Shown here one piece after another: positions 21,135 to 34,407 of a stretch of DNA of 47,774 bases. The translations under genes were made by a program, and so were the position numbers. The notes beneath the pieces are model-generated. The model did not search any database and was not told where the DNA came from. It was given only the letters and a program-made list of their open reading frames with translations. Source of the stretch: Phocaeicola massiliensis B84634 = Timone 84634 = DSM 17679 = JCM 13223. Its GTDB lineage: Bacteria; Bacteroidota; Bacteroidia; Bacteroidales; Bacteroidaceae. The DNA lies in assembly GCF_000382445.1 (NCBI RefSeq), contig NZ_KB905472.1, forward strand, positions 1,826,909-1,874,682. Reading direction: 5' to 3'. Each line of letters begins with the position of its first letter. The stretch's first letter is position 1.

Positions 21135-21890
21135 ATGACCCAAAGGGTAAGTCTCAGCATATTACTCTGTACCTTAGCGGCACTGACAGCACAAGCACAA
21201 TGGAGCAAACAGGATTCTCTCCGTTTACAGCAATTGTTAAATGGAGAGGAAGAATTAATCATCAACAAAGAAGCTGTAAAATCAATTCATTTTGACTTTA
21301 AACCGACTAAGGATGCCATCCAAGGAAGTCCGATGATATCTCAAGACAAACCATGGATGAAATTTCTAGATGCCTTACCCAAAAACTTTGGAGATACCAC
21401 CCAATGGATAAAACCCCAATATGTTCGCTTTACCCCTTACACCCCCTATACAAGATGGGATGAAGACCCGGTAAATGATCCGATTATCACCAATGAGAAA
21501 GAACTGAAAATATCCATGGTGTTAAATGTAAACAGCGCAATCAAATATGATGTAAGGGAACAACGTGTTATACTTACCGGCAAAAATAACAATGCCATTC
21601 AAGTCAGCGTAGGAGCAACATATACTTTCGATGCCGAAAAATTACTTTATGAAAACCTTACCACACGAGGACGTGCCATCAAACGCAACCGCAAACATGC
21701 CAATGCCTGGAAAAGCTATATGGACTATATACCAACCCTGCAGGATACCGTAAAGAAAGACACTACCCTAATGATGGAACTTCTGCGTAAACAAGCCGAA
21801 AGGCTCTACCCGGGAGTAGTGGAATCTTCTGACTCACTACTTCTTAAAAACAAAGTAAACGGCCAAAACCAGACAAAGGAAAGCCGCTAA
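21135..21890 (+). CDS. Exported DUF4858-like protein
   Basis: A 251-residue protein with an N-terminal signal peptide (SLSILLCTLAALTAQAQW, cleavage near AQA-Q). The rest is soluble, lysine- and threonine-rich, without cysteines or recognisable catalytic motifs. It resembles Bacteroidales proteins filed under DUF4858; that family call is from memory and moderately certain. Function unknown. Its last 54 bp overlap, tail to tail, the severed 3' end of the DMT-type gene on the other strand. Confidence 0.65.
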   Translation: MTQRVSLSILLCTLAALTAQAQWSKQDSLRLQQLLNGEEELIINKEAVKSIHFDFKPTKDAIQGSPMISQDKPWMKFLDALPKNFGDTTQWIKPQYVRFTPYTPYTRWDEDPVNDPIITNEKELKISMVLNVNSAIKYDVREQRVILTGKNNNAIQVSVGATYTFDAEKLLYENLTTRGRAIKRNRKHANAWKSYMDYIPTLQDTVKKDTTLMMELLRKQAERLYPGVVESSDSLLLKNKVNGQNQTKESR

Positions 21891-22050
21891 ATGATTCCAC
21901 TTCAGTTCCGTTTTAAAAGCCCAAACTGAAAATAGAGTAAACACGGCTAACGTAATCACTTCTTGTATTACTTTTAACTGCATGATATCAAACGGCCCTC
22001 CGTTATCGCGAAAGCCTAAACGATTGGCAGGCACCTGAAGACAATACTCA
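21837..22050 (-). pseudogene. 3' fragment of the DMT-type membrane protein gene, cut by the element
   Basis: The minus strand encodes VPANRLGFRDNGGPF...NHLAAFLCLVLAVYFVFKK, the C-terminal ~68 residues of a four-helix DMT-type (DMT_6-like) small membrane protein, with no proper start. The matching N-terminal part lies 11.3 kb away at 33383-33550. Joining the two through a single ATACTCA gives 375 bp, exactly 125 codons, reading AFFEY-CLQVPANRLGF. The element's own copy reads AFFEY-SCQIPANRIGY there. The gene was therefore split by insertion rather than lost by decay, and excision should restore it. Confidence 0.9.
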
Positions 22051-22082
22051 CTTAACTAAATAGACTTGCCCAAGTGAAATTT
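22044..22082. other. attL: core repeat and attP half-site
   Basis: The crossover core ATACTCA (22044-22050) is followed, inside the element, by CCCAAGTGAAATTT (22069-22082). This arm is an inverted copy, with two differences, of AAATTTCCAGTTGGG at the right end (33353-33367). In the circular form the arms would lie 19-35 bp either side of the core, the dyad expected for a large serine integrase attP. Confidence 0.75.
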
Positions 22083-22096
22083 TATACCTATATTTG
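22066..22096 (+). promoter_or_regulatory. Promoter of the serine recombinase
   Basis: TTGC (22066-22069, near-consensus -33), 19 nt, TATATTTG (22089-22096, perfect -7). The promoter overlaps the attP arm at 22069-22082, so recombinase bound to its site could repress its own gene. Confidence 0.6.
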
Positions 22097-22119
22097 CTTC
22101 ATAATCAATATATTACATT

Positions 22120-23934
22120 ATGATAAAAATTATAGGATACGCACGAGTTTCTACTACAAAACAAGACTTATCTCGACAAAAGCTAAAGATTAAGGAGTTC
22201 TGTGAGAACAACAATTATGAGTTAATTGAAATTATTGAGGACTTTGGAATATCTGGTGTGGTTGCAGACAGAAAAGGTTATATCGAATTACAAAGTAAAA
22301 CCTACAAAGATGCAGACATGATAGTAATTTCTGAGTTATCACGTTTGAGCAGGCAAGAAGATGTAACAGAGACAGTTTACAACATTCAACAGATTATTAA
22401 TAAAGGATTATCTGTAATACTCTTAGATAGTCCCAGTAAAATTTATGAAGCTAATAAACTTTTAGACATTACAGAAATACTTATCCTCACTATCAAAGCA
22501 TGGGCAGCAGCACAAGAAAGATTGGATATTAAAAAGAAGAACCAAGATGGGAAGCAAGCTCTCTTCCAAGCTTATCCTTATGCAGTTGTAGACCAAAAAA
22601 TACCTTATGGATATAAAGCAGTTCCTAACCCCAATGGGAAACGTCCTAAATATATTTTAGAAGAAGTACCAGAAGAAGTAGAGAATATAAAAAGACTCTT
22701 CGCTTTAGTAAACTCTGGTAAGACACTGGGAGCAGTAGCCAGATATTTCAATGAAAGGAATATTACTTTTAGAGGATATTACAGCACTGTTGCCATTCTA
22801 AGCAACTATATCCATAGTGATATTTATAGAGGAATCAGAAGAAGAACACAGAGATTAGGTAGAGAAGAACCTTATACCATCGAGGTTAGAATAAAACCTA
22901 TTATCAGTGAAGAGGATTTTATGAAAGCACAAGAGCTGATTAAAAACAACTATAAAAATACTCCAACTGGAAAAGTCAATCATAATCCATTAAAAGGAAT
23001 CATCAGATGTAGATGTGGGAGAGCCATGACTGTAAAAGACAAAAAGCCAGCAGCAGGAATTTCAAAACTAACATATAGATGTAGCTGTGTTGATAGGAAA
23101 TCTCATCCAGACTTCTGTAAATATAATATTGATGAAGTTTCTTACGACCTTACGAATGAAATATTATATAGTCTTTTCAAATCTATGCACACAGCAGAAT
23201 ATATCAACTTCTTTAGAAACCAAACAGACAATAGAGTTACAGAGCTACAAGAGGAAATAGCTGGAATTGAGAAACGTTTGTCTGCCCTATATCTTGATAA
23301 AGAGAACTTATCTAATGAAAGCCAAGATAATGCCAATAAGTTTCTACTAACCACCAACCCTACCCTTTTAAACATTATCCAAGAGAAACAGAACCAGTTA
23401 GATGAGAAGATAAAATCTATTGATAAAGAAATTATAAGATATAAAAAGTCACAGAGTAAAAAGATGGCAGACATCGAAAGGATTAAAGATAATAATGGTA
23501 AAGAGAAGCTTCAAAACCTTAGCATCGAAGAACAAGGAGAACTATATCATAAATATTTGGAGAGAGTGAATTATATTCCTGTCACTACCATGCAGGGATA
23601 TTATATTGTACAGTTCCTTAATGGAATTAAATTCTATATAGCTATTACGAAAGTCAGAAGCATTGCAATGGCTTCTCTCCTATTAGACAACTGGACGATT
23701 GATGAAAAAGGAATTATAACAGCTAACTATGATACTTTAAAGTCCAGTGATATGAAGAACTTTAGCATAGAAATGATTAGGAAAACAAAGACTATGACTT
23801 TACAAGAATATCTTAAATCAGACCTTGCAAAAGAAAGAGCCTTGCATCTTGACCTTAGTTATAGAGAAAGATATTTAGAAGAACTACATAAAGCAGGTTT
23901 GGATGGTAGGCTTAGACCATTAAAAAAGGAATAA
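22120..23934 (+). CDS. Large serine recombinase (integrase/excisionase of the element)
   Basis: A 604-residue site-specific recombinase. The resolvase domain (1-~150) carries the nucleophile S11 in IGYARVST, and SELSRLSRQ holds further catalytic arginines. The recombinase domain spans about 165-285 (IPYGYKAVPNPNGKRPKYILEEVPEEVENIKRLF). A zinc ribbon follows with C297, C299, C321, C323 and C333, and then a coiled coil (~355-460) typical of large serine integrases. It lies 70 bp from the left end and reads inward. It should join attP to attB by a 2-bp staggered cut within ATACTCA; excision normally needs an extra directionality factor, and the small proteins nearby are candidates. Confidence 0.93.
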   Translation: MIKIIGYARVSTTKQDLSRQKLKIKEFCENNNYELIEIIEDFGISGVVADRKGYIELQSKTYKDADMIVISELSRLSRQEDVTETVYNIQQIINKGLSVILLDSPSKIYEANKLLDITEILILTIKAWAAAQERLDIKKKNQDGKQALFQAYPYAVVDQKIPYGYKAVPNPNGKRPKYILEEVPEEVENIKRLFALVNSGKTLGAVARYFNERNITFRGYYSTVAILSNYIHSDIYRGIRRRTQRLGREEPYTIEVRIKPIISEEDFMKAQELIKNNYKNTPTGKVNHNPLKGIIRCRCGRAMTVKDKKPAAGISKLTYRCSCVDRKSHPDFCKYNIDEVSYDLTNEILYSLFKSMHTAEYINFFRNQTDNRVTELQEEIAGIEKRLSALYLDKENLSNESQDNANKFLLTTNPTLLNIIQEKQNQLDEKIKSIDKEIIRYKKSQSKKMADIERIKDNNGKEKLQNLSIEEQGELYHKYLERVNYIPVTTMQGYYIVQFLNGIKFYIAITKVRSIAMASLLLDNWTIDEKGIITANYDTLKSSDMKNFSIEMIRKTKTMTLQEYLKSDLAKERALHLDLSYRERYLEELHKAGLDGRLRPLKKE

Positions 23935-23950
23935 CTTCATCCTTTTTAAT

Positions 23951-23958
23951 TATCTTTG
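23951..23958 (+). promoter_or_regulatory. Promoter -7 box of the 284-residue orphan gene
   Basis: TATCTTTG, perfect TAnnTTTG, 24 nt before the ATG at 23983. It contains the TTG at which a longer frame would begin, which argues for the later start. Confidence 0.6.
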
Positions 23959-23982
23959 CTTCCAAACCATATAAGCAAAGAT

Positions 23983-24837
23983 ATGAGACCAATTGAAAGA
24001 CTTGAAGAAACTTATTTCCCTAAAGGTATAAAGTTACTTGAATACATGGAGGAAGTAGCAGTACTTTATGTACCAGATTATGATATAGACCATGAAACAG
24101 GAGAACAATATATTTATGGCACAACCGCCTTACCCTTATTCATAAGAAGATACAATCAGAATAAGCTATATGGTAACTTCACATACGAAGATTATATAGC
24201 CAATGAGGACATACAGAATACACTAAAAGGTTTAGGAATTGATATAGATAAGTTCTGGTTTCTACTTCTGTTCATCTTTGACTATACTTGTGGAACGTGC
24301 TTGGATGGAATGAAAGCTACAGGCATTGGAATAGAACAGCTCACCAAATTCGCCAAAGCCATAGCTGACAACCATAAGGAGATTAACCAATTTGGAGTGA
24401 GTTTTAAGAAACCTATCACTATCTCTGTAAAAGTAGAGGGCAAGCATCAGATAGTAATTGACAATGCCAATGCAATAGGCTACTTGGCTACTACCATCAT
24501 CAATAACCTAAAGGAGATAGAGGAACATCCTTGGATGCAGAGCCAACAAGTCAGCATAAGCACCCATGCAGAAGAAAAGGAATCCATTCAGATATACCTA
24601 TTTTATAAAATGTTTAACGACTTCTTCAATCTATCTCCATATAATAAGCAGTTTAATGTCAGACAAAAGAAAGGAAGCACCATATCACTTAGTAAGACAT
24701 TGCTCATATCAAGGCTTATCTATTTCACCAAGTTATCCAAACATAATAAATTCTCAGAAGATGAAGATGTTTTAAAAGGCTACATCAAGCAATATAAAGA
24801 CAAGAGAATTGATACTGCGAACAGCATATATTGCTAA
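23983..24837 (+). CDS. Orphan element protein, 284 residues
   Basis: I do not recognise this protein. It starts MRPIERLEETYFPKG at 23983. It is soluble with no signal peptide. The centre (FWFLLLFIFDYTCGTCLDGMKATGIG) is hydrophobic with two cysteines, and the C-terminal third is basic and could bind DNA (NVRQKKGSTISLSKTLLISRLIYFTKLSKHNKF). It follows the serine recombinase by 48 bp but has its own promoter and ends at a strong terminator, so it is a separate unit. Its place next to the integrase makes it one of several candidates for a directionality factor or regulator, although it is larger than most such factors. Confidence 0.75.
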   Translation: MRPIERLEETYFPKGIKLLEYMEEVAVLYVPDYDIDHETGEQYIYGTTALPLFIRRYNQNKLYGNFTYEDYIANEDIQNTLKGLGIDIDKFWFLLLFIFDYTCGTCLDGMKATGIGIEQLTKFAKAIADNHKEINQFGVSFKKPITISVKVEGKHQIVIDNANAIGYLATTIINNLKEIEEHPWMQSQQVSISTHAEEKESIQIYLFYKMFNDFFNLSPYNKQFNVRQKKGSTISLSKTLLISRLIYFTKLSKHNKFSEDEDVLKGYIKQYKDKRIDTANSIYC

Positions 24838-24858
24838 TAAACTTCTGATAATTAACAC

Positions 24859-24908
24859 AGTCCTGCTTCATGCCATTAAGAGGGTACATGAAAGCAGGAC
24901 TTTTTTTC
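24859..24908 (+). terminator. Intrinsic terminator after the orphan gene
   Basis: AGTCCTGCTT (from 24859) pairs with AAGCAGGACT (ending 24901). CATG on each side extends the stem past one bulge, and T7 follows at 24901-24907. The T tract runs into the first copy of the 100-bp repeat. Confidence 0.85.
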
Positions 24909-25074
24909 TCTCTTTTAATCCTGCCATTATATCCCATCTTTGCAGCGTCAAAAACGATAGCGGACGAGCTGACAATTAAGAGGGGAAGTAAAACCACTCA
25001 TTAATTTCTCTCTTTTAATCAGCCCAGAAGCAAGTAGTTTTGCAACATCAAAATCAATTAAAGCTGGAGCGCAC
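24875..25074 (+). repeat. Diverged 100-bp tandem repeat with a promoter in each copy
   Basis: Two head-to-tail units are exactly 100 bp apart. ATTAAGAGGG lies at 24875 and 24975, TTTCTCTCTTTTAATC at 24905 and 25005, and the -7 regions at 24935 (CATCTTTG) and 25035 (TAGTTTTG), each followed by GCArCrTCAAAAwC. Conserved blocks separated by diverged spacers suggest that the blocks are protein-binding sites. The downstream copy has the perfect promoter and serves the DGQHR gene at 25099. Confidence 0.75.
25035..25042 (+). promoter_or_regulatory. Promoter -7 box of the DGQHR gene
   Basis: TAGTTTTG, perfect TAnnTTTG, 56 nt upstream of the ATG, inside the second 100-bp repeat unit. The equivalent CATCTTTG at 24935 has one mismatch and may be a weaker second promoter. 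Confidence 0.6.
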
Positions 25075-25098
25075 CAGTCTAAAAACTGCAAAGAAAAT

Positions 25099-26007
25099 AT
25101 GATGACTATTTATTTTTATGGCAGCAATCGTGAAATCGTAGCAGAGAATGTAAAGAAGTGCTATTCTATGATTGAGAAATATGGCTTCAATGCAGCAATG
25201 GGTAAGATTAAGTTAGTTGGCAGCGAGGATTTAACAGGAGAGAAATTATTAAAAGTTTCCATTGTACCTAAGTCCAATGCCAAACCTCTTTCAATAGACA
25301 ACTGGATGCTGAATACAGAAGAGGTTACAGATGCTACTGAAAGAGCAGCAGCTAAAGCTCCTGTAGATGGACAACACAGAATGATAGCCATGTTCATACT
25401 GGAGGTAGAAGGTTTTCTTGATTTTAATGAGGAAGAAATGACTGAAACCATTAAGAAGCCAGAGAATATGAGTTTAGCATTATTTACAGCTTCTATCAAC
25501 AATGGCAGACCTTGGAATTATAAAGACTTTAGCAAATCAAAGTTCCAAACAGGAAACGAGAGAATTGATTATATTGAAGCACAAATTCAAGAAACAGGAT
25601 TGAAGTCTGACGTAATCTATAGTTTTTACACATTAGGACAAGCAGAGATTAAAGCCAATGTCGCCAAAGACCTTAAAATGGGCATAAACAGACTACCTAA
25701 ATCTTTAAAGTTAAATGCAACCACCCAAGAGTTAGGCGATAAAGTTCTAAAGGCTTTCAAGAGTAGTAAAATCTCTGAATCCACATATAACAATGGAAGA
25801 TTAGCTAAAGGATTTAAGTTGTTCTACAATGAATACAAACCTGAGATTAACCAAATCCAACAGTTAGTTGCCATGATTGACAAAGATGTGTGGTTTAGTA
25901 ATCAGAAACCAGACGGTAGTGCTGAAGCCAAACAATATTATAAGAATTTTGAGAAATGGTTCCAATATATGAATGAGAATAGCAACAAGCCTGTAGAAAC
26001 CGCATAA
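25099..26007 (+). CDS. DGQHR-motif protein, ParB/sulfiredoxin-like fold
   Basis: A 302-residue cytosolic protein with the sequence PVDGQHRMIAM, D90-G-Q-H-R94. This motif marks a branch of the ParB/Srx nuclease-like fold (compare the DGQHR and ParB N-terminal domains). Upstream of it is IVPKSNAKPLSIDNWMLNTEE, as in ParB-like domains where an N-terminal strand precedes the motif. The C-terminal ~150 residues are helical and lysine-rich. Roles of relatives include partition, transcription control and ATP/CTP-dependent switching; which applies here is unknown. The 100-bp repeats upstream are candidate operators for it. Confidence 0.65.
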   Translation: MMTIYFYGSNREIVAENVKKCYSMIEKYGFNAAMGKIKLVGSEDLTGEKLLKVSIVPKSNAKPLSIDNWMLNTEEVTDATERAAAKAPVDGQHRMIAMFILEVEGFLDFNEEEMTETIKKPENMSLALFTASINNGRPWNYKDFSKSKFQTGNERIDYIEAQIQETGLKSDVIYSFYTLGQAEIKANVAKDLKMGINRLPKSLKLNATTQELGDKVLKAFKSSKISESTYNNGRLAKGFKLFYNEYKPEINQIQQLVAMIDKDVWFSNQKPDGSAEAKQYYKNFEKWFQYMNENSNKPVETA

Positions 26008-26020
26008 CCAATTAACAATA

Positions 26021-26043
26021 AAGTCCATGTGACAGGTGGACTT
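26021..26043 (+). terminator. Short hairpin after the DGQHR gene
   Basis: AAGTCCA (26021-26027) and TGGACTT (26037-26043) form a 7-bp stem with a 9-nt loop, 13 bp after the stop. There is no T run, so it is only a weak terminator candidate. Confidence 0.35.
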
Positions 26044-26208
26044 ACTCTCCCCAAGTTCTTAGACATTCTGAATAGCCTCAAGTCTGATTACTAAATGTGT
26101 GGTCTTATCATTAGTCCCTCATTCATGGAATTACTATCTTTACAGTACCACAAACAGATAATCCCACCACACAGATTGACGGACTACAAACTATTCAGAA
26201 TATCTAAA

Positions 26209-26382
26209 ATGGAAGAATTTACTTATGAACAGATAAGGGTTAAGGCTCTTAAACAGGGAATAAAAGATAACAAGGTTCACATTGGATTGTGGGCTAATCT
26301 TAATAACTATCTAAAGACAAGGAGAAAAAAGAATGGAAAGGTTATTACTTATTATATCGCATTACAGAAGTTGGCTTACTGA
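26209..26382 (+). CDS. Small basic protein, 57 residues
   Basis: A frame starting at ATG 26209 (MEEFTYEQIRVKALKQGIKD) encodes 57 residues, strongly basic at the end (LKTRRKKNGKVITYYIALQKLAY). A longer reading up to 26095 is possible, but a near-consensus -7 box (TATCTTTA, near 26146) lies inside that extension, which favours the short form. A small basic protein in an integrative element is a typical excisionase or regulator, but no motif proves it. Confidence 0.45.
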   Translation: MEEFTYEQIRVKALKQGIKDNKVHIGLWANLNNYLKTRRKKNGKVITYYIALQKLAY

Positions 26383-26458
26383 CAAGATAAAAATTGAAAC
26401 TGAGAGATTCATATTGTCAAATTTGGGAGGTGTGCTTATTCACTTTTTACTGCGTGTC

Positions 26459-26499
26459 TAAACACCCCCTCTCTACATTCCTACGCTACATTCCAATAA
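26459..26499. repeat. Candidate replication-origin repeats upstream of the Rep-like gene
   Basis: The 13-bp TAAACACCCCCTC (26459-26471) recurs at 27605-27617, so the two copies bracket the Rep-like region. Directly after the first copy CTACATTCC occurs twice, 13 bp apart, like short iterons. No long AT-rich run or DnaA box is obvious. Confidence 0.4.
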
Positions 26500-26568
26500 G
26501 ACCTATGCAATGTCCTTGCGGACACCACACAGGTAATCTGTAAGCTGGGAGTGACTAAAATCAATGAT

Positions 26569-26781
26569 ATGTGGATTTATAACAATCATTTCTATAACAA
26601 GCTGAGCGAACTTAGGAAGTCAAACAAATTAAGTTCCTCTAAAATGAGATTCTTATTAAAGACCAACCAAATCATTTTAATTAAGCATATTGAGCGATTG
26701 CCTTATGAGCGAAGAAAAACTACCATTCAAGGAATACACAGTAATGAGCAACAATCTGATTCAAAAGTTAGGTTGTGCTGA
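26569..26781 (+). CDS. Possible small protein overlapping the Rep-like gene
   Basis: A 70-codon frame, basic (KLSELRKSNKLSSSKMRFLLKTNQIILIKHIERL), resembling a helix-turn-helix stretch. It overlaps the first 77 bp of the Rep-like gene in another frame, which weakens the case. It could be a copy-control or leader product. Its start could also be the GTG at 26551. No promoter is evident. Confidence 0.3.
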   Translation: MWIYNNHFYNKLSELRKSNKLSSSKMRFLLKTNQIILIKHIERLPYERRKTTIQGIHSNEQQSDSKVRLC

Positions 26782-27520
26782 TGTTTACAGGACATACGTG
26801 TTACTATTGACAGCAGACAAAAACACATTGATTACTGACACCACGATAGACCAGCTTGCATCATTTGTTGGTGATAAACCTGCCAACTATAAAGGTGGTA
26901 AGAGTTCCAAATCATTCAATGACAAGTTAAGAGCCACAGGGGAAGTTACTATACAGAAAAAGGATAGTGGCAGGGATGACAGGACTTGGACAGATTATAT
27001 ATTCTCTCCAGTCTGTTTTGGGCATTACAGAAGAATCAACAGGGAGTTTTACGATTCATACAACAATACTCTGGATTTAAAACTAAGAGGATTCATCCTT
27101 AAATTGTTCAGTGCAGCAGAACCACACAGCCATACTATTACTTTACCTGTAAGGAGAATGAAAGAACTAATCCACATGGGACATGACACTATTTCCAGAT
27201 ACATAGAGCAACTAAGGGATATGGACTTATTGGATGAAGTTGGGGATTCAATCATACTAAAGGCTAAAGGTTTGCTTATAGACCTACCCAAAGATAAATA
27301 TGTGGAGGAAGTGAAAGCAGTCTTTGAACACATGATAGCATTTAACGAGAGCAGAGGAAACCCCATTTCAAGGGAGTGCATGATTTATAAGAAGTACAAG
27401 GAGAATAATTTTGAGGGAGTTAAGGATATGCACGCTCTTATGAAATCATTATCAAATGGGTTGGTAGGCAGGAAGCAGGAGGTAAAAGACAAGGAAGAAC
27501 TACCAGACCTATTCCTATGA
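26705..27520 (+). CDS. Winged-helix replication-initiator-like protein
   Basis: A 271-residue soluble protein starting MSEEKLPFKEYTVMSNNLIQK at 26705; a TTG-initiated extension upstream is unlikely. It has two apparent winged-helix units: residues ~20-75 (YRTYVLLLTADKNTLITDTTIDQLASFV) and ~125-185 (LRGFILKLFSAAEPHS...LIHMGHDTISRYIEQLRDMDLLDEV). This two-winged-helix plan is that of plasmid Rep proteins (RepA/Rep_3 style), but a DNA-binding regulator is also possible. The flanking 13-bp direct repeats and upstream iteron-like words support Rep. The stop overlaps an ATG (ATGA) of a 47-codon frame running to about 27660, too short for me to call. Confidence 0.5.
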   Translation: MSEEKLPFKEYTVMSNNLIQKLGCADVYRTYVLLLTADKNTLITDTTIDQLASFVGDKPANYKGGKSSKSFNDKLRATGEVTIQKKDSGRDDRTWTDYIFSPVCFGHYRRINREFYDSYNNTLDLKLRGFILKLFSAAEPHSHTITLPVRRMKELIHMGHDTISRYIEQLRDMDLLDEVGDSIILKAKGLLIDLPKDKYVEEVKAVFEHMIAFNESRGNPISRECMIYKKYKENNFEGVKDMHALMKSLSNGLVGRKQEVKDKEELPDLFL

Positions 27521-27878
27521 ATCAGTCTAAGCTACCATCAATAAGCATACCATTATCAGCATTTCCAATTTTAAAGAGTTATACACGAGACACCCCTACC
27601 CACATAAACACCCCCTCATGGCTCTTAAATAAAAAAGAATGCTTTAGAAATGTAGTCTGATAGCTGACTGAAATAAGCATTCTTATTAATCCAAGAACAG
27701 GCACGATGCACTATTATCACAACCAACCTATAATTTACTAATGCTCCTCATTTCCTTTGAAAGAATCTTTAGGGAAAGACATAGGACAGCCTAAAATACA
27801 GGTGAAGAAATTCACTTGTGTTTTAGGTCTGTTCTTGTTAAATCCATTCAATCAATAACCATTTAATTCAATTTCATT
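27521..27878. other. Non-coding interval with two inverted repeats
   Basis: This gap holds the second TAAACACCCCCTC (27605-27617), an inverted repeat AAGAATGCTT/AAGCATTCTT (27635-27644 and 27675-27684), and a long hairpin at 27784-27834. Apart from a 47-codon frame overlapping the Rep-like stop, no coding potential is seen. It may contain the element's origin or the control region of the DUF3871 gene. Confidence 0.45.
27784..27834 (+). repeat. Long perfect-loop hairpin upstream of the DUF3871 gene
   Basis: CCTAAAATACAGGTGAA and TTCACTTGTGTTTTAGG fold into a 17-bp stem (two G-U pairs) closed by GAAA, and GACAG/CTGTT lengthens it after a bulge. There is no T tract. It ends 44 bp before the ATG at 27879, so it could be a 5' leader element, a protein-binding cruciform or a single-strand origin. 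Confidence 0.6.
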
Positions 27879-28898
27879 ATGAGAGATTTAGTAATTATGC
27901 CAGCTATGGCACAGCGTAGAGAATCATTAAACATGGGTGAGTTTGCAGAAGAAGCAATCATTGTAGAAGAAGTTGCAGCACCCAAAAGAGTAAATCATTT
28001 CATTGAAGCAAATACACAGGAAGTAACCTTGCAGCATCTACAACAAGACTGCATCATTCCAAGTTTTGCATCAATGGAAGAAACCATTAGCCACCAATCC
28101 TTTATAGGTGCAGTAGTGGATGCTGCTAAGGATTACTTTCATGGAGAGCAGTTTGATATGCCAGAGATTAGAATCTCACACCCTATCAATGGTAGAATAC
28201 CAAGTGCATTAGGTAAGAAGGCTTCTGAACTGACTGATAAAGAGAAAACTTTGTTCTATCAGAGAATGTGCTTCTGCTTTGAAATTCCATCCATTGTACA
28301 TGATGAATACGGTAATCGTTTAGCATTATCCATTGGTGGAGTGAGAGCATATAACGAGATTAACCTGTACAGTAAGAAATCTGTGGAGAGATTTAAAATC
28401 TTCATAGGCTTTCGTAATCGTGTGTGCTCAAATTTAATGCTTACTACTGACGGTTTACAGGATAAGATAGAAGTCCTAAGCGTACAGGAACTATATGCAG
28501 CAGCATTGAATCTGTTCCATGCTTACAACCCATCCAAAGACCTGCATCTATTAAGGACACTTGGGCAGATGTCAATCTCTACAAGCGAGTTTTGTCAGAT
28601 AATAGGCAGGATGAGATTATATCAAGCTCTTACACCCAACCAACAGAAACGCTTACCTCGTCTATTGTTGGGTGACAGTCAAATTAATGCAGCTTGCAGA
28701 GCATTCGTTTCTGATGCGAACTTTAAAAGTACAGGAGACAGCATTACTGGTTGGCAGCTCTTAAACCTGCTCAATGGTTCTGTAAAGTCAAGTTACATTG
28801 ATAACTTCTTGGAGAAGAATCTTAACTGCACAGAGTTCGTACAAGGCATCCAACGTGCCAAATTAGGAGATAGTGAATACGCTTGGTTCTTGGGCTGA
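27879..28898 (+). CDS. DUF3871 family protein
   Basis: A 339-residue soluble protein matching the DUF3871 pattern seen in Bacteroidetes mobile elements (EISHPINGRIPSALGKKASELTDKEKTLFYQRMCFCFEIP...ALSIGGVRAYNEINLY...FKIFIGFRNRVCSNLML). It is reminiscent of phage/plasmid DUF932-type proteins of unknown role. It is followed by a terminator and then RadC. I assign the family by recognition; its activity is unknown, but its frequent company with rep and radC genes suggests a role in element DNA maintenance. Confidence 0.75.
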   Translation: MRDLVIMPAMAQRRESLNMGEFAEEAIIVEEVAAPKRVNHFIEANTQEVTLQHLQQDCIIPSFASMEETISHQSFIGAVVDAAKDYFHGEQFDMPEIRISHPINGRIPSALGKKASELTDKEKTLFYQRMCFCFEIPSIVHDEYGNRLALSIGGVRAYNEINLYSKKSVERFKIFIGFRNRVCSNLMLTTDGLQDKIEVLSVQELYAAALNLFHAYNPSKDLHLLRTLGQMSISTSEFCQIIGRMRLYQALTPNQQKRLPRLLLGDSQINAACRAFVSDANFKSTGDSITGWQLLNLLNGSVKSSYIDNFLEKNLNCTEFVQGIQRAKLGDSEYAWFLG

Positions 28899-28919
28899 GT
28901 GGATTGTTGATTGAGAGAG

Positions 28920-28956
28920 GAAAGGGCATCATTAACTTGGTGTCCTTTCTTTATTT
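28920..28956 (+). terminator. Intrinsic terminator after DUF3871
   Basis: GAAAGGGCA (28920-28928) pairs with TGTCCTTTC (28941-28949), followed by TTTATTTCT. It shares the AAGGGCA...TGTCCTT words with the hairpin after radC, so the two may derive from one another. Confidence 0.7.
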
Positions 28957-28983
28957 CTACCAACTTATTAAACATTGTACATT

Positions 28984-29430
28984 ATGGATATAGATTATAC
29001 TGTGGGTGAAGTGGAACTGTCTTACAAACCCAAATTCAAGAAACTGCATAAGGTAGTCAGTTCAGAGGATGCTTACAGATACTTGCTTCCTACCTATAAG
29101 GAGGGTACAATCTGTTACAAAGAATACTTCAAAGTCCTGTTCTTAAACCAAGCCAAGCAAGTTTTAGGTTACACTCTCATATCAGAGGGTGGAATTACTG
29201 AAACTTGTGCTGATGTAAGAGTAATTCTACAAGCTGCATTGCTTACCAATTCAGTAGCCATTATTCTTGCACATAACCATCCAAGCGGTAGCATGAAACC
29301 AAGTAGGCAGGATATGGAGATTACTAAACAGGTCAAGGATGCTGCAAGACTTATGAGAATTACAGTTTTAGACCACCTCATATTAACAGATACAGGATAT
29401 TACAGCTTCGCAGACGAGGGAGAATTATAA
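28984..29430 (+). CDS. radC: RadC/JAB-domain protein
   Basis: A 148-residue protein with the JAB1/MPN+ metalloprotease-like motif in ILAHNHPSGSMKPSRQD (H-x-H-x7-S-x2-D), and the preceding DVRVILQAALLTNSVAIIL strand. It lacks the N-terminal helix-hairpin-helix of chromosomal RadC, so it is the short mobile-element form. The start is the ATG at 28984 (MDIDYTVGEV). Despite its name, RadC has no proven DNA-repair role; short forms are common on integrative elements and may process DNA or ubiquitin-like conjugates. Confidence 0.88.
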   Translation: MDIDYTVGEVELSYKPKFKKLHKVVSSEDAYRYLLPTYKEGTICYKEYFKVLFLNQAKQVLGYTLISEGGITETCADVRVILQAALLTNSVAIILAHNHPSGSMKPSRQDMEITKQVKDAARLMRITVLDHLILTDTGYYSFADEGEL

Positions 29431-29434
29431 TAAG

Positions 29435-29471
29435 GTAAAGGGCACTCAATTTCTAAGTTGGGTGTCCTTAC
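29435..29471 (+). terminator. Terminator-like hairpin after radC
   Basis: GTAAAGGGCACTCAA and TTGGGTGTCCTTAC form a ~14-bp stem with one bulged A and an 8-nt loop, 4 bp after the radC stop. The following sequence is TTAATAAT, a weak U tract. Confidence 0.6.
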
Positions 29472-29476
29472 TTAAT

Positions 29477-29559
29477 AATATTCACTTCTACTATTAGTGA
29501 ATGTTCCTTTAGTAATCAGTGAGTTAGTAAATCCAACTCAGAATTAATATTCACTTCTA
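29477..29559. repeat. Direct and inverted repeats before the short tyrosine recombinase
   Basis: AATATTCACTTCTA occurs at 29477-29490 and again at 29546-29559. The first copy also forms the dyad ATTCACT/AGTGAAT (29480-29486 and 29496-29502). The complement AGAAGTGAAT recurs near 30460. The second copy lies 26 bp upstream of the recombinase ATG, so these are plausible binding or recombination sites of that enzyme. Confidence 0.5.
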
Positions 29560-29585
29560 TTCGTTTCATTATAAAACAGAATATT

Positions 29586-30173
29586 ATGTCACTTAAATAT
29601 TCAAGCACAACCGCAGACTATCTTATATGGTCTGAAGCAATGAACCTCATACGAAAGTTAGCCAAAGACGAGAATTATAAAATCTCACTTCTTATAGCTT
29701 TGGGATGCTTCACAGGATTAAGAATATCTGATATTCTATCTCTAAGGTGGAAACAGATATTAGGTGCAGACGAATTTACAGTAATTGAGCAAAAGACAGG
29801 TAAGGTAAGAATTATCAGACTGAACCCCCAATTACAGCAGCATATTAAAGAGTGCTACGAGCATATAAATCCAGTTGGAATCAATGCGCCAATTCTTATA
29901 AGTCAGAAAGGCACTATCTTCACAGTCCAGAGAATCAATATCATTCTTAAAGAGGTGAAGAAGAAGTACAAGTTAAAGATTAAGAACTTTAGCTGCCATT
30001 CGCTTAGAAAGACTTTTGGTAGGCAGGTCTATAACATGAACAGCGATAACGCAGAGTTGGCATTAGTAAAGTTGATGGAACTGTTCAACCATAGTTCTGT
30101 TGCCATTACTAAAAGATACTTGGGATTAAGGCAGGAAGAAATCTTACAGACTTATGACTGTTTGAGCTTCTGA
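29586..30173 (+). CDS. Short tyrosine recombinase, catalytic domain only
   Basis: A 195-residue protein consisting almost entirely of the phage-integrase catalytic domain. R46 (TGLRISDIL), K70 (EQKTGK), H138-x2-R141 (CHSLRKTF), H169 (FNHSS) and the nucleophile Y178 (KRYLGL) are all present. The N-terminal SAM-like core-binding domain of XerC/D and lambda-type integrases is missing. Such minimal recombinases are known as invertases and accessory recombinases. Because the serine enzyme explains integration, this one may act on the repeats beside it, on multimers of the circular form, or on another site. It ends before 740 bp of non-coding DNA. Confidence 0.85.
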   Translation: MSLKYSSTTADYLIWSEAMNLIRKLAKDENYKISLLIALGCFTGLRISDILSLRWKQILGADEFTVIEQKTGKVRIIRLNPQLQQHIKECYEHINPVGINAPILISQKGTIFTVQRINIILKEVKKKYKLKIKNFSCHSLRKTFGRQVYNMNSDNAELALVKLMELFNHSSVAITKRYLGLRQEEILQTYDCLSF

Positions 30174-30913
30174 TTATTGGGACAGGATTATTAAGATTCA
30201 TCTTTATAGTGGTCTGAATGATTCTGTCCCAAATCAATAGAATATTGAGCTTAGATATATCTAAAGTCCAATCTTAGTAGTTTGGCATTTCAGCTTTATA
30301 GAAGTAGTTCTATTCCATAAGTTTACAGACTTTAGAATTATCTCAACTCTTATTAATAATGTCGCAGGTAGCACTTCTTGAATATCCAACAATATGCTGA
30401 CTTAAAGATGATAATTCATGGTTGGTAAGAATATTCAGAATTTAGTCCTTATATGGGAAGAAGTGAATTTGATACCCACATGGATTTAGAGAGTTTAGAT
30501 GCAACTCTGACTAAATATCTCATGCAGACTATGTTTAATGGCACGATAATTACTATTTGTCCTCACTTCATGCCTATTAATTTAGAACCTTTCATTATCT
30601 TTGCACCAATTCCAACGAGCTAATGAGATAGGGAGTTGGAAGGACATAATTTAATGAGAGCATAACGAATTATCCTCTATTTGGAATCTGGACAATTTCA
30701 TAAGTTAGGGATAGTAGTTCAATATGCTCATGCTAATGCTATATACCTGCTTCATCTTTATGGAGTAGTGAATATATACATTCAGCATGGGCTATTGTCT
30801 ATTACTTAACTTAGGGCAGTCCAGAGCCTCAAATAGGGTAATATTCAATAGTTCCCATGCTCTTTTATTTTATAATAGCTTATCCATAGGGAACAGGTAG
30901 GCACAAGAATAAA
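30174..30913. other. 740-bp structured non-coding region
   Basis: No convincing gene is present; the best frame is 56 codons (30453-30623). Structures seen are the inverted repeat TTGGGACAG/CTGTCCCAA (30177-30185, 30224-30232), a perfect 14-bp palindrome TTAGATATATCTAA (30251-30264), a perfect -7 box TATCTTTG (30596-30603), and a long stem AGCATGGGCTATTG/CAATAGTTCCCATGCT (30784-30797, 30846-30861) followed by CTTTTATTTTA. The GTTCCC of that stem can instead pair with GGGAAC at 30889-30894. The region could encode an RNA of about 260 nt or hold recombination sites. Confidence 0.5.
30784..30870 (+). terminator. Terminator-like stem with a competing downstream partner
   Basis: The stem is 7 + 6 bp around a 2-nt bulge and is followed by a U-rich tract. 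GTTCCC (30851-30856) could alternatively pair with GGGAAC (30889-30894), 20 bp before the 119-residue gene. Two exclusive foldings, one with a terminator, are the layout of an attenuator. Confidence 0.4.
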
Positions 30914-31273
30914 ATGATAATGGATAAGAGAACTGCAACCTTTATTCAACAGATTACAAATAGATTCAACCAATTCAATATTGTTCATCAAGTAATGGAG
31001 AACGATTATAACACATCTAATTCAGTTTTGGATGAACCATTTACTTGCGATTATCAAATTAGCATATGGCTTCAAAACAATAAGTTAGGACACCAAGACT
31101 TGTACATGTACTTGAATAAAAAAGATGATTTAAGCTTAGTAGCCGTTAAGACCACTCATACAACGCCTAAATTATTAGAAATATGTCAGCGATTGGGCAT
31201 GCTTTATGGCGTTCCATTCAAGACAATAACAAAGGATAAGATTGGAAGAGATAGTTACTACTTTATCTTCTAA
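30914..31273 (+). CDS. Orphan protein, 119 residues
   Basis: Not recognised. It is a soluble, mixed alpha/beta protein starting MIMDKRTATFIQQITNRF (an ATG two codons later is equally possible). The middle, CDYQISIWLQNNKLGHQDLYMYLNKKDDLSLVAVKT, looks like strands and the end, EICQRLGMLYGVPFKTITKDKIGRDSYYFIF, like a helix-strand unit. It lies behind the structured non-coding region and 39 bp before the next small gene. Composition is like the rest of the element. Confidence 0.6.
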   Translation: MIMDKRTATFIQQITNRFNQFNIVHQVMENDYNTSNSVLDEPFTCDYQISIWLQNNKLGHQDLYMYLNKKDDLSLVAVKTTHTTPKLLEICQRLGMLYGVPFKTITKDKIGRDSYYFIF

Positions 31274-31312
31274 CTTTTTTAATTCTGAATAACAACCATT
31301 CAATTATAATAT

Positions 31313-31651
31313 ATGAAAGATAAATCTAAACACAATCTAAATCAATTCATTAAGAAGCTGCAATATCATGGAGCGATACAAAGAATGAATGATATGACAG
31401 GAAGATACAATGAGAAAGTTTCACTAAATGATTTGAACATGAAACTTCCTTGTGGAGCTTATATAACTTCAATGATATTATTAACTGACACAGAAGATAA
31501 TATAAAAGCTATAGCATGCCGTGGGACAAACCTTTCATCGTTACAGAAAGAAGTTTGGTGGTCTAATATATTCATGGGATTACCTGTGAGGATTAGTGGT
31601 ACAGACTTCGACAGTCTTTATCAACTTATCATATTCGCAACATTAATTTAA
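31313..31651 (+). CDS. Orphan protein, 112 residues
   Basis: Not recognised. It starts MKDKSKHNLNQFIKKLQYHG, with a basic N-terminal helix, then strand-like segments (GAYITSMILLTDTEDNIKAIACRG). There is no signal peptide. It ends 9 bp before the lipoprotein gene, so the two are probably co-transcribed, and follows the 119-residue gene by 39 bp. Confidence 0.6.
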   Translation: MKDKSKHNLNQFIKKLQYHGAIQRMNDMTGRYNEKVSLNDLNMKLPCGAYITSMILLTDTEDNIKAIACRGTNLSSLQKEVWWSNIFMGLPVRISGTDFDSLYQLIIFATLI

Positions 31652-31660
31652 TCAATATCA

Positions 31661-32869
31661 ATGAGAACAATAAGATTATTAGCAACCTCTCTATTGGTTG
31701 CATTAAGCATGGGAGTTAGTTCCTGTGGGGATGATGAATTGGAGGTTAATCCACCCTTAAACAATGTAGAACAGATGTGCTTGGAATATGGAATTACAGA
31801 CTATCAGAATATTGAATTACTAAGTCTGTTTGAACATGGAAATAATACTATTATCAATTTAGGTCAAGCAAACTTCTCTGGACTAAAGGATGACAAACTA
31901 TGGCTTGCATCATTCAAGGTAGAGGACAAATCACCCATCATTAATTGGACTGACGAGTTGCCATTTAATAGAAATCATAGGATATACAAAGGTTATGGAG
32001 AATATGAAGATGTCACTATTCAACAGATAACTCTATTGCAAGCAATGCCATTCAATCAAGACTTTGTAGCATCATTAAGTTACAGCTTTGGGAAAGACTA
32101 TAGCTATCACGCCTTACTGTTTAAGCAAAGTTCACAAACAAAAGAAATTCAACTCAAAGATAGTGGATTTGGCATAGGTGCATGGTACGAAAATTCTATC
32201 ATAAATGGTAAATGCTGTTACTCGTTGTCTGGTGATACTATTTACGTAGCAGAGAAAGGCTTTGGCTATCAAAATGTAGGAACAGTTTACAGTTCTGACC
32301 TTATATCACACCAAGAAGCTATATTTACTTGTAGAGACGAAGAAGGTTTCTTCGTTGGCAGAAGAAGTTTCAAATTAGGTCAAAACTTTTGGAAAGTTAA
32401 AGTCGCAGAGCTTAGCAACGAACCTGCTGATGCCAAAATTGAGGTAAGTGTAGAAGATAAGTCCAAGCAAGTTTGGAAGTACAATGTCAATATTATCCAT
32501 TACGATGGGACAAAGAAGGATGTAACATTTGAAGTAAATATTGACAACGGTACAATTAAAGGAGAGGATAATTATACTTCTCTCATTATAGGCAAATGGA
32601 AAATGACAAGTGGTAACGCTATCGCCACCCATGTAACTTATAAAAATGACAGTACATTTGAATATACAAGTACAGAAGATAGCTCTTACAAGGAAGTGGG
32701 CAAGTACAAGATAGACGGTAACAAGCTCTATGAAATGTACAGCGATGAAGAAGAATGGATTATCAATGATATTCTGTTACTTAATTCTATGACCTTATCA
32801 GTGCAGGAATTGGAAGCTGATGGAGTAACACCCACAGGTCAGAAGTACTCTTATCAGAGAGTGGAATAA
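31661..32869 (+). CDS. Lipoprotein with C-terminal lipocalin-like domain
   Basis: A 402-residue surface or periplasmic lipoprotein. The signal peptide MRTIRLLATSLLVALSMGVSSC has its lipobox cysteine at 22. The long middle part (about 40-300) is beta-rich with no family I can name. The final ~85 residues (LIIGKWKMTSGNAIATHVTYKNDSTFEYTS...GKYKIDGNKLYEMYSDEEEW) follow the lipocalin-like pattern of many Bacteroides lipoproteins: GKW opening, DGTF-like turn and a GxYxIxG strand. It is the only clear envelope gene of the element and so its most likely cargo. Confidence 0.75.
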   Translation: MRTIRLLATSLLVALSMGVSSCGDDELEVNPPLNNVEQMCLEYGITDYQNIELLSLFEHGNNTIINLGQANFSGLKDDKLWLASFKVEDKSPIINWTDELPFNRNHRIYKGYGEYEDVTIQQITLLQAMPFNQDFVASLSYSFGKDYSYHALLFKQSSQTKEIQLKDSGFGIGAWYENSIINGKCCYSLSGDTIYVAEKGFGYQNVGTVYSSDLISHQEAIFTCRDEEGFFVGRRSFKLGQNFWKVKVAELSNEPADAKIEVSVEDKSKQVWKYNVNIIHYDGTKKDVTFEVNIDNGTIKGEDNYTSLIIGKWKMTSGNAIATHVTYKNDSTFEYTSTEDSSYKEVGKYKIDGNKLYEMYSDEEEWIINDILLLNSMTLSVQELEADGVTPTGQKYSYQRVE

Positions 32870-32933
32870 AAGATTTACGCATACTAAAAGTGAGCAGCAT
32901 TTGAATAAACTCTTATGCTGCTCTTTTCTATAA

Positions 32934-33305
32934 CTATTTCATAAATACAAAATAAACAGCCAATATCAAGCAAACGAAGGCAGCTATATGATTCCAGTGC
33001 AAAGCTTCACCTTTAAAGAATACAGTTGTAAAAACTGTGAATATAATAAGAGTTATTACTTCTTGAAGAACTTTCAACTGCATCAATGAAAATGGTCCTC
33101 CATTACCTACATATCCAATGCGATTCGCTGGAATTTGACAAGAATACTCAAAAAAAGCTATTGACCAACTAAAGGCTATTACACCTATCAAAGGAAGAGC
33201 AGCAAACCAAGAATATTCCTGCTTCATCTTTAAATGACCATACCAAGCAAAAGTCATAAAGACATTTGATACTATAAGCAATAAAATTGTGTAGAGAGCT
33301 TTCAT
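32934..33305 (-). CDS. Element-borne intact copy of the DMT-type target gene
   Basis: A 123-residue inner-membrane protein with four hydrophobic helices, DMT_6-like, resembling half-size multidrug/metabolite transporters. It can be aligned end to end with the split host gene: identical blocks are SNVFMTFAWYGHLKMKQE, SWFAALPLIGVIAFSW and GGPF, with conservative changes elsewhere. It lies on the same strand as the severed 5' fragment and begins only 32 bp after that fragment's stop, so it takes the position of the disrupted gene in the ttcA-like operon. It has no clear promoter of its own. It also contains the 15-bp ATACTCAAAAAAAGC (33144-33158) present at the host crossover site. Confidence 0.88.
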   Translation of the reverse strand: MKALYTILLLIVSNVFMTFAWYGHLKMKQEYSWFAALPLIGVIAFSWSIAFFEYSCQIPANRIGYVGNGGPFSLMQLKVLQEVITLIIFTVFTTVFFKGEALHWNHIAAFVCLILAVYFVFMK

Positions 33306-33337
33306 ATTATTCTAATTCTACTATACATTATTATATA

Positions 33338-33550
33338 TCAACATAAAGTGTTAAATTTCCAGTTGGGTTTTTCCGTTTTATTATACTCAAAAAAAGCAAC
33401 CGCCCAACTAAAAGCAATCACGCCAATCAATGGAAGTGCCGCAAACCAACTGAATTCCTGTTTCATCTTTAAATGCCCATACCATGCAAAAGTCATGAAC
33501 ACATTCGAAAAAATCAATAAAATGATTGAATAAATACCTTGAGATACCAT
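33338..33550 (-). pseudogene. 5' fragment of the DMT-type gene, chimeric with the element end
   Basis: Host-derived codons run from ATG 33550 (MVSQGIYSIILLIFSNVF) to the core at 33383 (AFFEY). The frame then continues for 14 codons of element sequence (NKTEKPNWKFNTLC) to a stop at 33338. The product would have two helices and is probably non-functional. The ATG lies 7 bp after the ttcA-like stop, so the gene was the second one of that operon. Its other half is at 21837-22050. Confidence 0.9.
33353..33389. other. attR: attP half-site and core repeat
   Basis: AAATTTCCAGTTGGG (33353-33367) is the inverted partner of CCCAAGTGAAATTT at 22069-22082. It sits 15 bp inside the second ATACTCA (33383-33389). 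Right of the core, host sequence continues AAAAAAGCAACC. Confidence 0.75.
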
Positions 33551-33557
33551 TTTGTTC

Positions 33558-34304
33558 TTAATCTATTTTATCAGGAAGTAAATCCTCCTGTATGTTTGTC
33601 ATACTTCCCCATAAGCTATAACGTGCCTCGGGATTCAATTTCTCTAAAGATTTCAACACCTCTTTCATGTCCGAACGATTTGACTGGCTTTCGTAAGGAC
33701 AATTCTTTATCTGCCGACGATACCCCCGAACACGAGCCATATCTGACAAATCAGACTCATGCACCAAGCACATGGGACGAATGATAGTCATGTCAAACTT
33801 ACGCATCACCAACCGAGGCGGCATAGTTCCAAATGCCCCTTGAAAAGTGATATTCATCAACAATGTTTCCAAAATATCATCCATGTGATGCCCCAATGCT
33901 ATCTTAGTACATCCATGCTCTTTAGCAACTGTGAAAAGAGCCTTCCTCCGATTCCACGAACAAAGGAAGCACGGAGATTTACGAGTATCAGTTGACAAAT
34001 CGAACGATGTTTCAAAATACACAAATGGCACTCCCAAACCCTCAGCATAATTCTTCAAGTATTCCAAATCGGACTGATAAGGAATATTCGTCATGCCAAT
34101 GTGTACTGCCATAACCGTAAAACGTGGTTTTAAGATACGAGAACGCTTTGCCAACAATTCCAATAACGCCAACGAATCTTTACCTCCGGACAAACCAACC
34201 AATATCTTATCTCCATCTTCAATAAGACGATATTTCACCATCCCCTTGTTAAAGCGTTGCTCCACACGGCGCATTATTTTATCTTCTTCCGTAAATTGTG
34301 CCAT
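33558..34304 (-). CDS. TtcA-like tRNA 2-thiolation ATPase
   Basis: A 248-residue PP-loop enzyme. The ATP-pyrophosphatase motif is GLSGGKDSL (near residue 48), the PCFLC cysteine pair follows (near 112-116) and then GHHMDDILETLLMN. This is the TtcA/TilS-like group that thiolates tRNA using a bound Fe-S cluster. The third family cysteine may be that of KNCPYESQSN. The start is the ATG at 34304 (MAQFTEEDKIMRRV); an upstream ATG frame overlaps the promoter box. It is first in an operon whose second gene is the disrupted DMT-type gene. Confidence 0.87.
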   Translation of the reverse strand: MAQFTEEDKIMRRVEQRFNKGMVKYRLIEDGDKILVGLSGGKDSLALLELLAKRSRILKPRFTVMAVHIGMTNIPYQSDLEYLKNYAEGLGVPFVYFETSFDLSTDTRKSPCFLCSWNRRKALFTVAKEHGCTKIALGHHMDDILETLLMNITFQGAFGTMPPRLVMRKFDMTIIRPMCLVHESDLSDMARVRGYRRQIKNCPYESQSNRSDMKEVLKSLEKLNPEARYSLWGSMTNIQEDLLPDKID

Positions 34305-34326
34305 ATCTGTTTTTAGAAATCGGGCA

Positions 34327-34334
34327 CAAAAATA
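34327..34334 (-). promoter_or_regulatory. Promoter -7 box of the ttcA-like operon
   Basis: TATTTTTG on the minus strand, perfect TAnnTTTG, 22 nt before the ATG at 34304. By position it should drive ttcA, the severed 5' fragment and, by read-through, the element's replacement copy. Confidence 0.6.
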
Positions 34335-34407
34335 CATGAAAAGAATGATTTATGGAAGATTTCATAAAATAGAATGAAGTAAAGTGGCATAATTCCAATA
34401 AATATTG

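What the first reader, a model, noticed from the sequence alone, without database searches (positions are those of the whole stretch)
22044..33389. Integrative element that breaks a host gene and brings its own replacement copy
The element splits a DMT-type membrane gene at ATACTCA; the halves (21837-22050 and 33383-33550) rejoin in frame to 125 codons. At its right end it carries a complete diverged copy (32934-33305) of the same gene. tRNA-targeting elements restore the end of the tRNA they enter, but a serine-recombinase element that carries a full-length protein-coding substitute for its target is a different and much less documented solution. It would make insertion into a useful gene neutral for the host.
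Basis: partly seen in the sequence, partly recalled or inferred. Interest (0 to 1): 0.93.

Follow-up and report, generated by a model that had tools for sequence, protein, structure and literature searches.

The report
Gene-breaking element carrying a substitute gene
A likely mobile DNA element, found in eight bacterial genomes, splits the same small membrane-protein gene at the same point each time and carries a complete, different version of that gene at one end, which likely keeps the function alive; in one related species only the carried copy and a trace of the element's end are left.

Summary
Confirmed, and it generalises. An 11.3-kb serine-recombinase element (22044-33389) splits a DMT_6/DUF486 gene at a conserved Glu-Tyr codon pair; the flanks rejoin to an intact 124-residue ORF. 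A full 123-residue copy lies just inside the right end, in the host gene's orientation. All 8 of 8 distinct recombinase loci of at least 37% identity have this layout; the copy starts 32-34 nt (61 nt in the most distant) behind the stop of the truncated host ORF. In the seven close elements the copies are 92-99% identical to each other whatever the host, while the broken targets differ down to 62%; the copies evolve under purifying selection. The eighth (recombinase 37% identical) has a copy from another branch of the gene tree (AU p = 0.008), so the layout probably arose twice. In a sister species the element is gone except its right end, and the copy is the only DMT_6 gene left. Most likely the copy rescues the broken gene by taking its place in the ttcA operon; transcription and function are inferred. 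The strategy has a published precedent (recA mobile elements of Vibrio, phage-type integrase), so I call this a new variant of a known kind.

The parts
22044..33389 (.). the integrated element with both core repeats (ATACTCA at 22044-22050 and 33383-33389); crossover inside TACTC
   Evidence: rejoined ORF; core shared by the seven close elements narrows to TACTC
21837..22050 (-). 3' part of the split DMT_6 gene
33383..33550 (-). 5' part of the split DMT_6 gene
33338..33550 (-). truncated ORF: the host 5' part plus 14 element-encoded codons, 70 residues; stop 32 nt before the copy's ATG
32934..33305 (-). intact substitute copy, DMT_6, 123 residues
33143..33150 (.). core-like sequence AATACTCA kept inside the copy (GAG-TAT codons)
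22120..23934 (+). large serine recombinase, 604 residues
   Evidence: start at element position 77
23956..24837 (+). element protein B, no family; 93-97% in six close elements (partial in G050), 34% in the G282 element
25099..26007 (+). element protein C, no family; 93-95% in five close elements, 30% in the G282 element
26690..27520 (+). element protein D, 276 residues, no family; 89-92% in five close elements
27879..28898 (+). DUF3871 protein
28975..29430 (+). RadC-like JAB-domain protein
29586..30173 (+). short tyrosine-recombinase-like protein, 195 residues
31661..32869 (+). 402-residue protein, no Pfam family; converges on the copy
33558..34337 (-). ttcA-like host gene, 7 nt upstream of the split gene, same strand

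Best explanation
This is a serine-recombinase element that splits a DMT_6 membrane-protein gene and carries an intact, diverged copy of that gene at its right end, where the copy likely takes over the broken gene's place in the ttcA operon. Shown: the split, the intact copy, the single-gene state of genomes without the element, the same layout in 8 of 8 elements, purifying selection on the copy, and one genome in which only the copy and the element's right end are left. Inferred: the recombinase integrates by an attP x attB crossover inside TACTC at the Glu-Tyr codons of the gene; transcription that would have run from ttcA into the target runs through its truncated 5' part and, about 32 nt after the stop, into the copy; the low DNA identity of copy and target (65.6-77.4%) keeps recombination between them rare. 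The copy would make insertion nearly free of cost, and it can outlive the element, so that the host's gene is swapped for good.
For: Layout in 8 of 8 distinct loci, in hosts of two families. Copies 92-99% identical in protein among the seven close elements against 62-92% for their targets: the copy travels with the element. Purifying selection: dN/dS 0.06-0.17 in the 18 of 21 copy pairs with dS above 0.1; each of 9 copies keeps 50 or 51 of 51 columns invariant in 43 other rows. Fixed place: copy ATG 32-34 nt after the stop of the truncated ORF in 7 of 7, 61 nt in G282; the target follows ttcA on the same strand wherever ttcA was found, 30 of 36 element-free or fossil loci and 7 of 8 element hosts. 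Fossil in G015: copy intact and the only DMT_6 match, right end and core readable (score 103, shuffled maximum 27), old gene reduced to a short remnant, no recombinase relative. Two origins of the copy: one clade rejected, p-AU 0.008 (the group was named after the tree had been seen).
Against: No expression or function data; the DMT_6/DUF486 function is unknown to me and 192 of 393 order genomes have no match at E <= 1e-8, so the gene is not indispensable everywhere, though 36 of 37 good-quality genus genomes have a match. A weak terminator-like stem lies on the transcribed strand at 33421-33396 in the 5' part (3 such sites found in the stretch, 1.1 expected), and a promoter-like site right before the copy (33354-33327) means that it might be transcribed from inside the element instead (5 such sites found, 6.7 expected). 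In G004 ttcA lies 359 nt away and in G050 no ttcA was found. The copy keeps the recombinase's core and attB-like flanks, which should expose it to attack.
Confidence: 0.8

Rival explanations
1. The copy is chance cargo, or an older host duplicate that happens to lie beside the insertion.
For: Elements carry variable cargo between about 8.6 and 9.6 kb of the element; genomes with two DMT_6 matches and no known element exist (G055; G152 and G270, not examined).
Against: 8 of 8 elements have it, always at the right end and in the target's orientation; copies resemble each other, not the host gene; 50 of 54 genus genomes with a match have one.
Confidence: 0.03
2. The copy is mainly a hold on the host (addiction): once the native gene is broken, any sloppy loss of the element that takes the copy along is costly, so the copy keeps the element in place rather than sparing the host.
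For: The copy is the only intact DMT_6 gene of the window's genome; in G015 nearly everything but the copy was lost.
Against: In G015 the host lost the element while keeping the copy, so the hold failed. Precise excision would restore the native gene, which rejoins intact in 8 of 8.
Confidence: 0.1
3. The copy serves mainly as a renewed landing site: it keeps an attB so that further elements can stack at the locus.
For: All 7 close copies keep GAG-TAT although GAA is commoner in natural genes (23 of 35); their half-sites are within 2-3 mismatches of 23 of those of used targets; PWM scores 52.8-56.5 lie within the ranges of used targets (42.1-59.9, leave-one-out) and natural genes (40.2-63.7).
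Against: One recombinase match per carrier genome wherever whole genomes were searched, so no stacked elements seen; selection over the full protein is more than a short site needs; on the circle, attP and the copy's site about 240 bp apart could react with each other.
Confidence: 0.06

Closest known systems
recA mobile elements of Vibrio cholerae S24 (PMC4405046) and V. parahaemolyticus 090-96 (PMC4334540); passages read
   Same: The element disrupts a coding gene at a fixed site, carries a complete, divergent (24% in V. parahaemolyticus) copy at one end with the integrase gene at the other, and precise excision restores the native gene.
   Different: There a phage integrase and recA; a functional copy, excision and movement were tested at the bench for V. 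cholerae. Here a large serine recombinase and a DUF486 gene, eight elements in two lineages, the copy placed behind the truncated ORF in the host operon, and a fossil in which only the copy survived; nothing tested at the bench.
Genomic islands in tRNA genes (PMC4383910, start of abstract seen in the listing)
   Same: The island brings sequence that makes good the target that it splits.
   Different: There island sequence regenerates the tRNA gene at the junction; here the target stays broken and a separate full gene is brought.
Serine-integrase ICEs and prophages that disrupt coding genes and excise when the gene is needed (streptococcal ICEs, comK prophage A118: passages of PMC4701971; SPbeta in spsM: PMC4191935, start of abstract in the listing)
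   Same: Serine recombinase, crossover inside a coding gene, gene restored on exact excision.
   Different: They rely on dispensable targets or on excision; no substitute is mentioned in what I read.
Engineered insert-and-rescue gene drives (recalled, no call)
   Same: Insertion into a gene together with a divergent rescue copy.
   Different: Engineered, nuclease-based, with a rescue recoded to resist cutting; the copy here keeps the recombinase's core.

Membership tests
Large-serine-recombinase integrative element | Recombinase with resolvase catalytic domain and Recombinase domain near one end | tested here: met
   Pfam Resolvase 1.2e-21, Recombinase 4.9e-12; PHROG integrase 7.1e-61; element position 77
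Large-serine-recombinase integrative element | Short shared core, one fixed site across hosts | tested here: met
   Same Glu-Tyr codons in 8 of 8; core TACTC in the seven close ones, TGTATTCGAA in G282
Large-serine-recombinase integrative element | Excision and integration by the recombinase | not testable with these tools
   Only intact rejoined targets and presence in several host species speak for it
Conjugative or mobilisable element (ICE/IME) | Relaxase or type IV secretion genes | tested here: inconclusive
   None among the 10 window proteins scanned per library; some short ORFs and most genes of the other elements were not scanned
recA-mobile-element-like 'break and substitute' element | Target coding gene split at a fixed site, empty site rejoins intact | tested here: met
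   8 of 8 rejoined ORFs of 122-124 residues
recA-mobile-element-like 'break and substitute' element | Complete divergent copy of the target at one end | tested here: met
   8 of 8; own copy against own target 65.6-77.4% in DNA
recA-mobile-element-like 'break and substitute' element | Copy shown to be functional | not testable with these tools
   Only purifying selection, kept invariant residues and survival in G015
recA mobile elements proper (the Vibrio family) | recA target, carried recA and phage-type integrase | tested here: not met
   Target and copy are DMT_6 and the terminal recombinase is of the serine type: it works like one but is not a member

The most novel reading that the evidence does not exclude
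A natural insertion-and-rescue system that swaps host genes: serine recombinases of one superfamily have at least twice recruited a full substitute of the gene that they break and slotted it in as the next gene of the host's operon. When the element decays, the host keeps the foreign version, so a gene of the core genome is replaced at its own locus without homologous recombination. The copy keeps the recombinase's core, so the landing site is passed on as well.
Probability: 0.45. Interest if true: 0.85.

Novelty: new variant of a known kind. Interest (0 to 1): 0.74.

Why it matters
Elements that cut protein genes are usually thought to hit dispensable genes or to excise when the gene is needed. 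This is another answer, seen in eight elements, two recombinase lineages and hosts of two families, with empty sites, filled sites and a post-element fossil to compare. It offers a route by which a single gene can be exchanged between species at its native place, which would mislead gene trees, and it makes a testable natural counterpart to engineered insert-and-rescue designs (the latter recalled).

Tried and rejected
Viral contigs hold no relative of the recombinase or of a roughly 49% identical one. PADLOC gave nothing for 10 window proteins. PDB gave no relative of the copy (three antibody chains at E 0.57-0.63, taken as chance). The paper search for DUF486 led to PMC11968277, whose hits are DUF4867. 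Whether other copy-like natural genes (L019-L029, L031) are older domesticated copies: none of the 35 loci other than G015 exceeds its shuffled maximum for the element's right end, although L023 and L026 just pass the 95% mark, so not claimed. Whether the copy is recoded to escape its recombinase: not borne out. A family search around G282 reached only 4 genomes. The roughly 49% identical recombinases, several named Butyricimonas, could not be placed in genomes: the order search with one of them found only G000 and G282. In some searches at most 3 candidates per genome were scored, so weaker relatives may be missed. Left out of the 8-of-8 count: two G010 loci (recombinase 32-33% identical, no DMT_6 match in the 20 kb around each) and L015 (24%, Clostridiaceae, not examined). 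In G050 and G103 the two element ends lie on different contigs and were assumed to belong together. The right ends were parsed wrongly for four elements and for all but the window; corrected.

Literature: nine searches were answered; four of them returned no paper. No paper on this DMT_6 element turned up in them; the library lacks most subscription journals, so absence from print is not claimed.

Full report
The observation. The window holds an element of 11,339 bp (core to core) between two ATACTCA repeats at 22044 and 33383. On both sides lie pieces of one DMT_6 (PF04342, DUF486) gene on the minus strand. Joined at the repeat they read as a 124-residue protein and a stop. Just inside the right end, also on the minus strand, 32934-33305 encodes a complete 123-residue DMT_6 protein (E 5.6e-44), 74% identical to the rejoined target. 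The genome's three DMT_6 matches at E <= 0.001 are this copy and the two halves. A 604-residue large serine recombinase starts at element position 77.

Relatives. In 100 related genomes the recombinase was found at E <= 1e-60 in 4: the window's own, G004 and G050 at 99% identity, and G010 at 33% in two places. The named genome collection gave Bacteroides salyersiae, B. faecalis, B. timonensis and Mediterranea massiliensis at 97-99% besides G050 (titled Phocaeicola sp.) and G004. An order-wide search found 2 of 393 genomes at E <= 1e-100, the window's own and G282 of another family, 39% identical (37%). In the family 3 of 399 genomes had it at E <= 1e-80, in the genus group of B. salyersiae 3 of 109 at E <= 1e-120. 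By record titles the seven close elements are in three genera; by the group codes told, in at least two (g1 and g42). One protein cluster (P0008, 99% identical) stands for 1,870 member sequences.

The layout holds in all. In the seven close elements and in G282 (8 of 8) the flanks rejoin to intact ORFs of 122-124 residues, and a full copy of 122 or 123 residues sits at the right end in the target's orientation. Element lengths are 11.3-14.3 kb in the five of seven that lie on one contig and 20.2 kb in G282. The core shared across the seven is TACTC, at the Glu-Tyr codons. All 7 targets read GAG there, against 12 of 35 natural genes (0.0006 if loci were independent, which they are not). In G282 the ends share TGTATTCGAA at the same codons, with GAA.

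The copy belongs to the element. Copies are 92-99% identical in protein and 91.9-99.7% in DNA among the seven, while the targets range from 62 to 92% in protein. Own copy and own target are 65.6-77.4% identical in DNA over the eight. Among copies dN is 0.003-0.040 and dS 0-0.292; in the 18 of 21 pairs with dS above 0.1, dN/dS is 0.06-0.17. Of 51 columns invariant in 43 natural and target rows, each of 9 copies (G015's included) keeps 50 or 51. In the tree of 52 proteins the seven copies and the G015 gene are one side of a branch (76/70, not well supported), while the G282 copy groups elsewhere; a tree that holds all 9 together is rejected with p-AU 0.008, the group having been named after a first tree was seen. 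The substitute was therefore probably acquired twice, or exchanged in one lineage.

Placement. The target gene follows a ttcA-like gene on the same strand in 30 of 36 loci without the full element (-4 to 137 nt apart; G015, 127 nt, is one of them); in the other 6 no ttcA was found in the stretch fetched. In element hosts the gap is 7-30 nt in 6 of 8, 359 nt in G004, and no ttcA was found in G050. The truncated host ORF runs 14 codons past the Glu-Tyr into the element in 7 of 7 and 4 codons in G282; it stops 32-34 nt before the copy's ATG in 7 of 7 and 61 nt in G282. The copy thus stands where the operon's next gene would stand. That it is transcribed from there is inferred. Promoter-like sites are at chance level (5 found, 6.7 expected), one of them right before the copy; of three terminator-like sites (1.1 expected) one weak stem lies in the 5' part of the target on the transcribed strand. 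Between the copy and the converging gene I read by eye an inverted repeat with a T run (about 32892-32927); the scan, which allows loops up to 8, did not list it.

Fossil. G015, whose ttcA pairs with the window's (96% identity; 100/98), has no recombinase relative at E <= 1e-60 and one DMT_6 match, 97% identical to the element's copy. Upstream of it the element's right end and core are readable (local score 103, shuffled maximum 27; none of the other 35 loci exceeds its own shuffled maximum), followed by a short remnant of the old 5' part; neither the old 3' part nor the recombinase was found in the 20 kb around it. dN/dS of this gene against the seven close copies is 0.04-0.08. A host has thus kept the substitute and lost the original.

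Against. The gene's function is unknown, and 192 of 393 order genomes lack a match at E <= 1e-8, though 36 of 37 good-quality genus genomes have one. Not each single match is proven intact: one has an inner TAG (G024) and one is cut by a contig end (G012). The copy still carries the core and attB-like flanks, which should make it a target; one recombinase match per carrier genome was seen, so no stacked elements. Second DMT_6 matches without a known element exist in G055, G152 and G270 and were not examined. No relaxase or secretion gene was seen among the proteins scanned, so how the element moves between cells is open.

What is known. The recA mobile element of V. cholerae S24 has the same logic and was tested at the bench; a relative in V. 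parahaemolyticus carries a recA 24% different (PMC4405046, PMC4334540; passages). In the passages read of PMC4701971 all insertions of 29 streptococcal ICEs with serine integrases disrupt coding genes, with excision offered as the way to limit the cost. In the passages read of PMC10083194, a survey of large serine recombinases, target genes are treated as disrupted; no carried substitute is mentioned there. I place this as a new variant of a known kind.

Noticed in passing
L065:17039-19264 and L066:1346-2987 (inside the G282 element): Ubiquitin-like conjugation genes as cargo: a Prok-E2 / ThiF / JAB protein, a DUF6791-ThiF protein and a multiubiquitin protein; PADLOC E1-E2 and JAB models match. 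Possibly a defence system.
   Followed up: partly
window 23956-24837 and 25099-26007; L066:4705-6554; L074:13621-14637: Two proteins without family (B and C) recur in the distant G282 element (34% and 30%), and a B relative (28%, E 4e-14) lies right after the 33% identical recombinase of G010, so B goes with this recombinase group beyond the DMT_6 site.
   Followed up: partly
L074:11130-11798 and L075:9596-10255 (G010): Both G010 recombinases start beside a VapE-like C-terminal piece (Pfam; the two pieces are 55% alike). Whether a split gene or a substitute is involved was not tested.
   Followed up: partly
window 27879-28898: The DUF3871 gene comes in two forms on otherwise similar elements: 97-99% in G100, G102 and G103, 55% in G004 and G101, as if exchanged as a module.
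   Followed up: no
window 29586-30173: A short tyrosine-recombinase-like gene (195 residues) inside the serine-recombinase element, 96-97% identical in four other elements; not found in the incomplete G050 and G103 sequences.
   Followed up: no
L022-L029 (natural loci of the genus): Their ttcA groups with that of G004 (95/80), but their DMT_6 gene is of the copy-like type while G004's own target is not. This could be older gene swapping; no element remnant was found upstream.
   Followed up: partly
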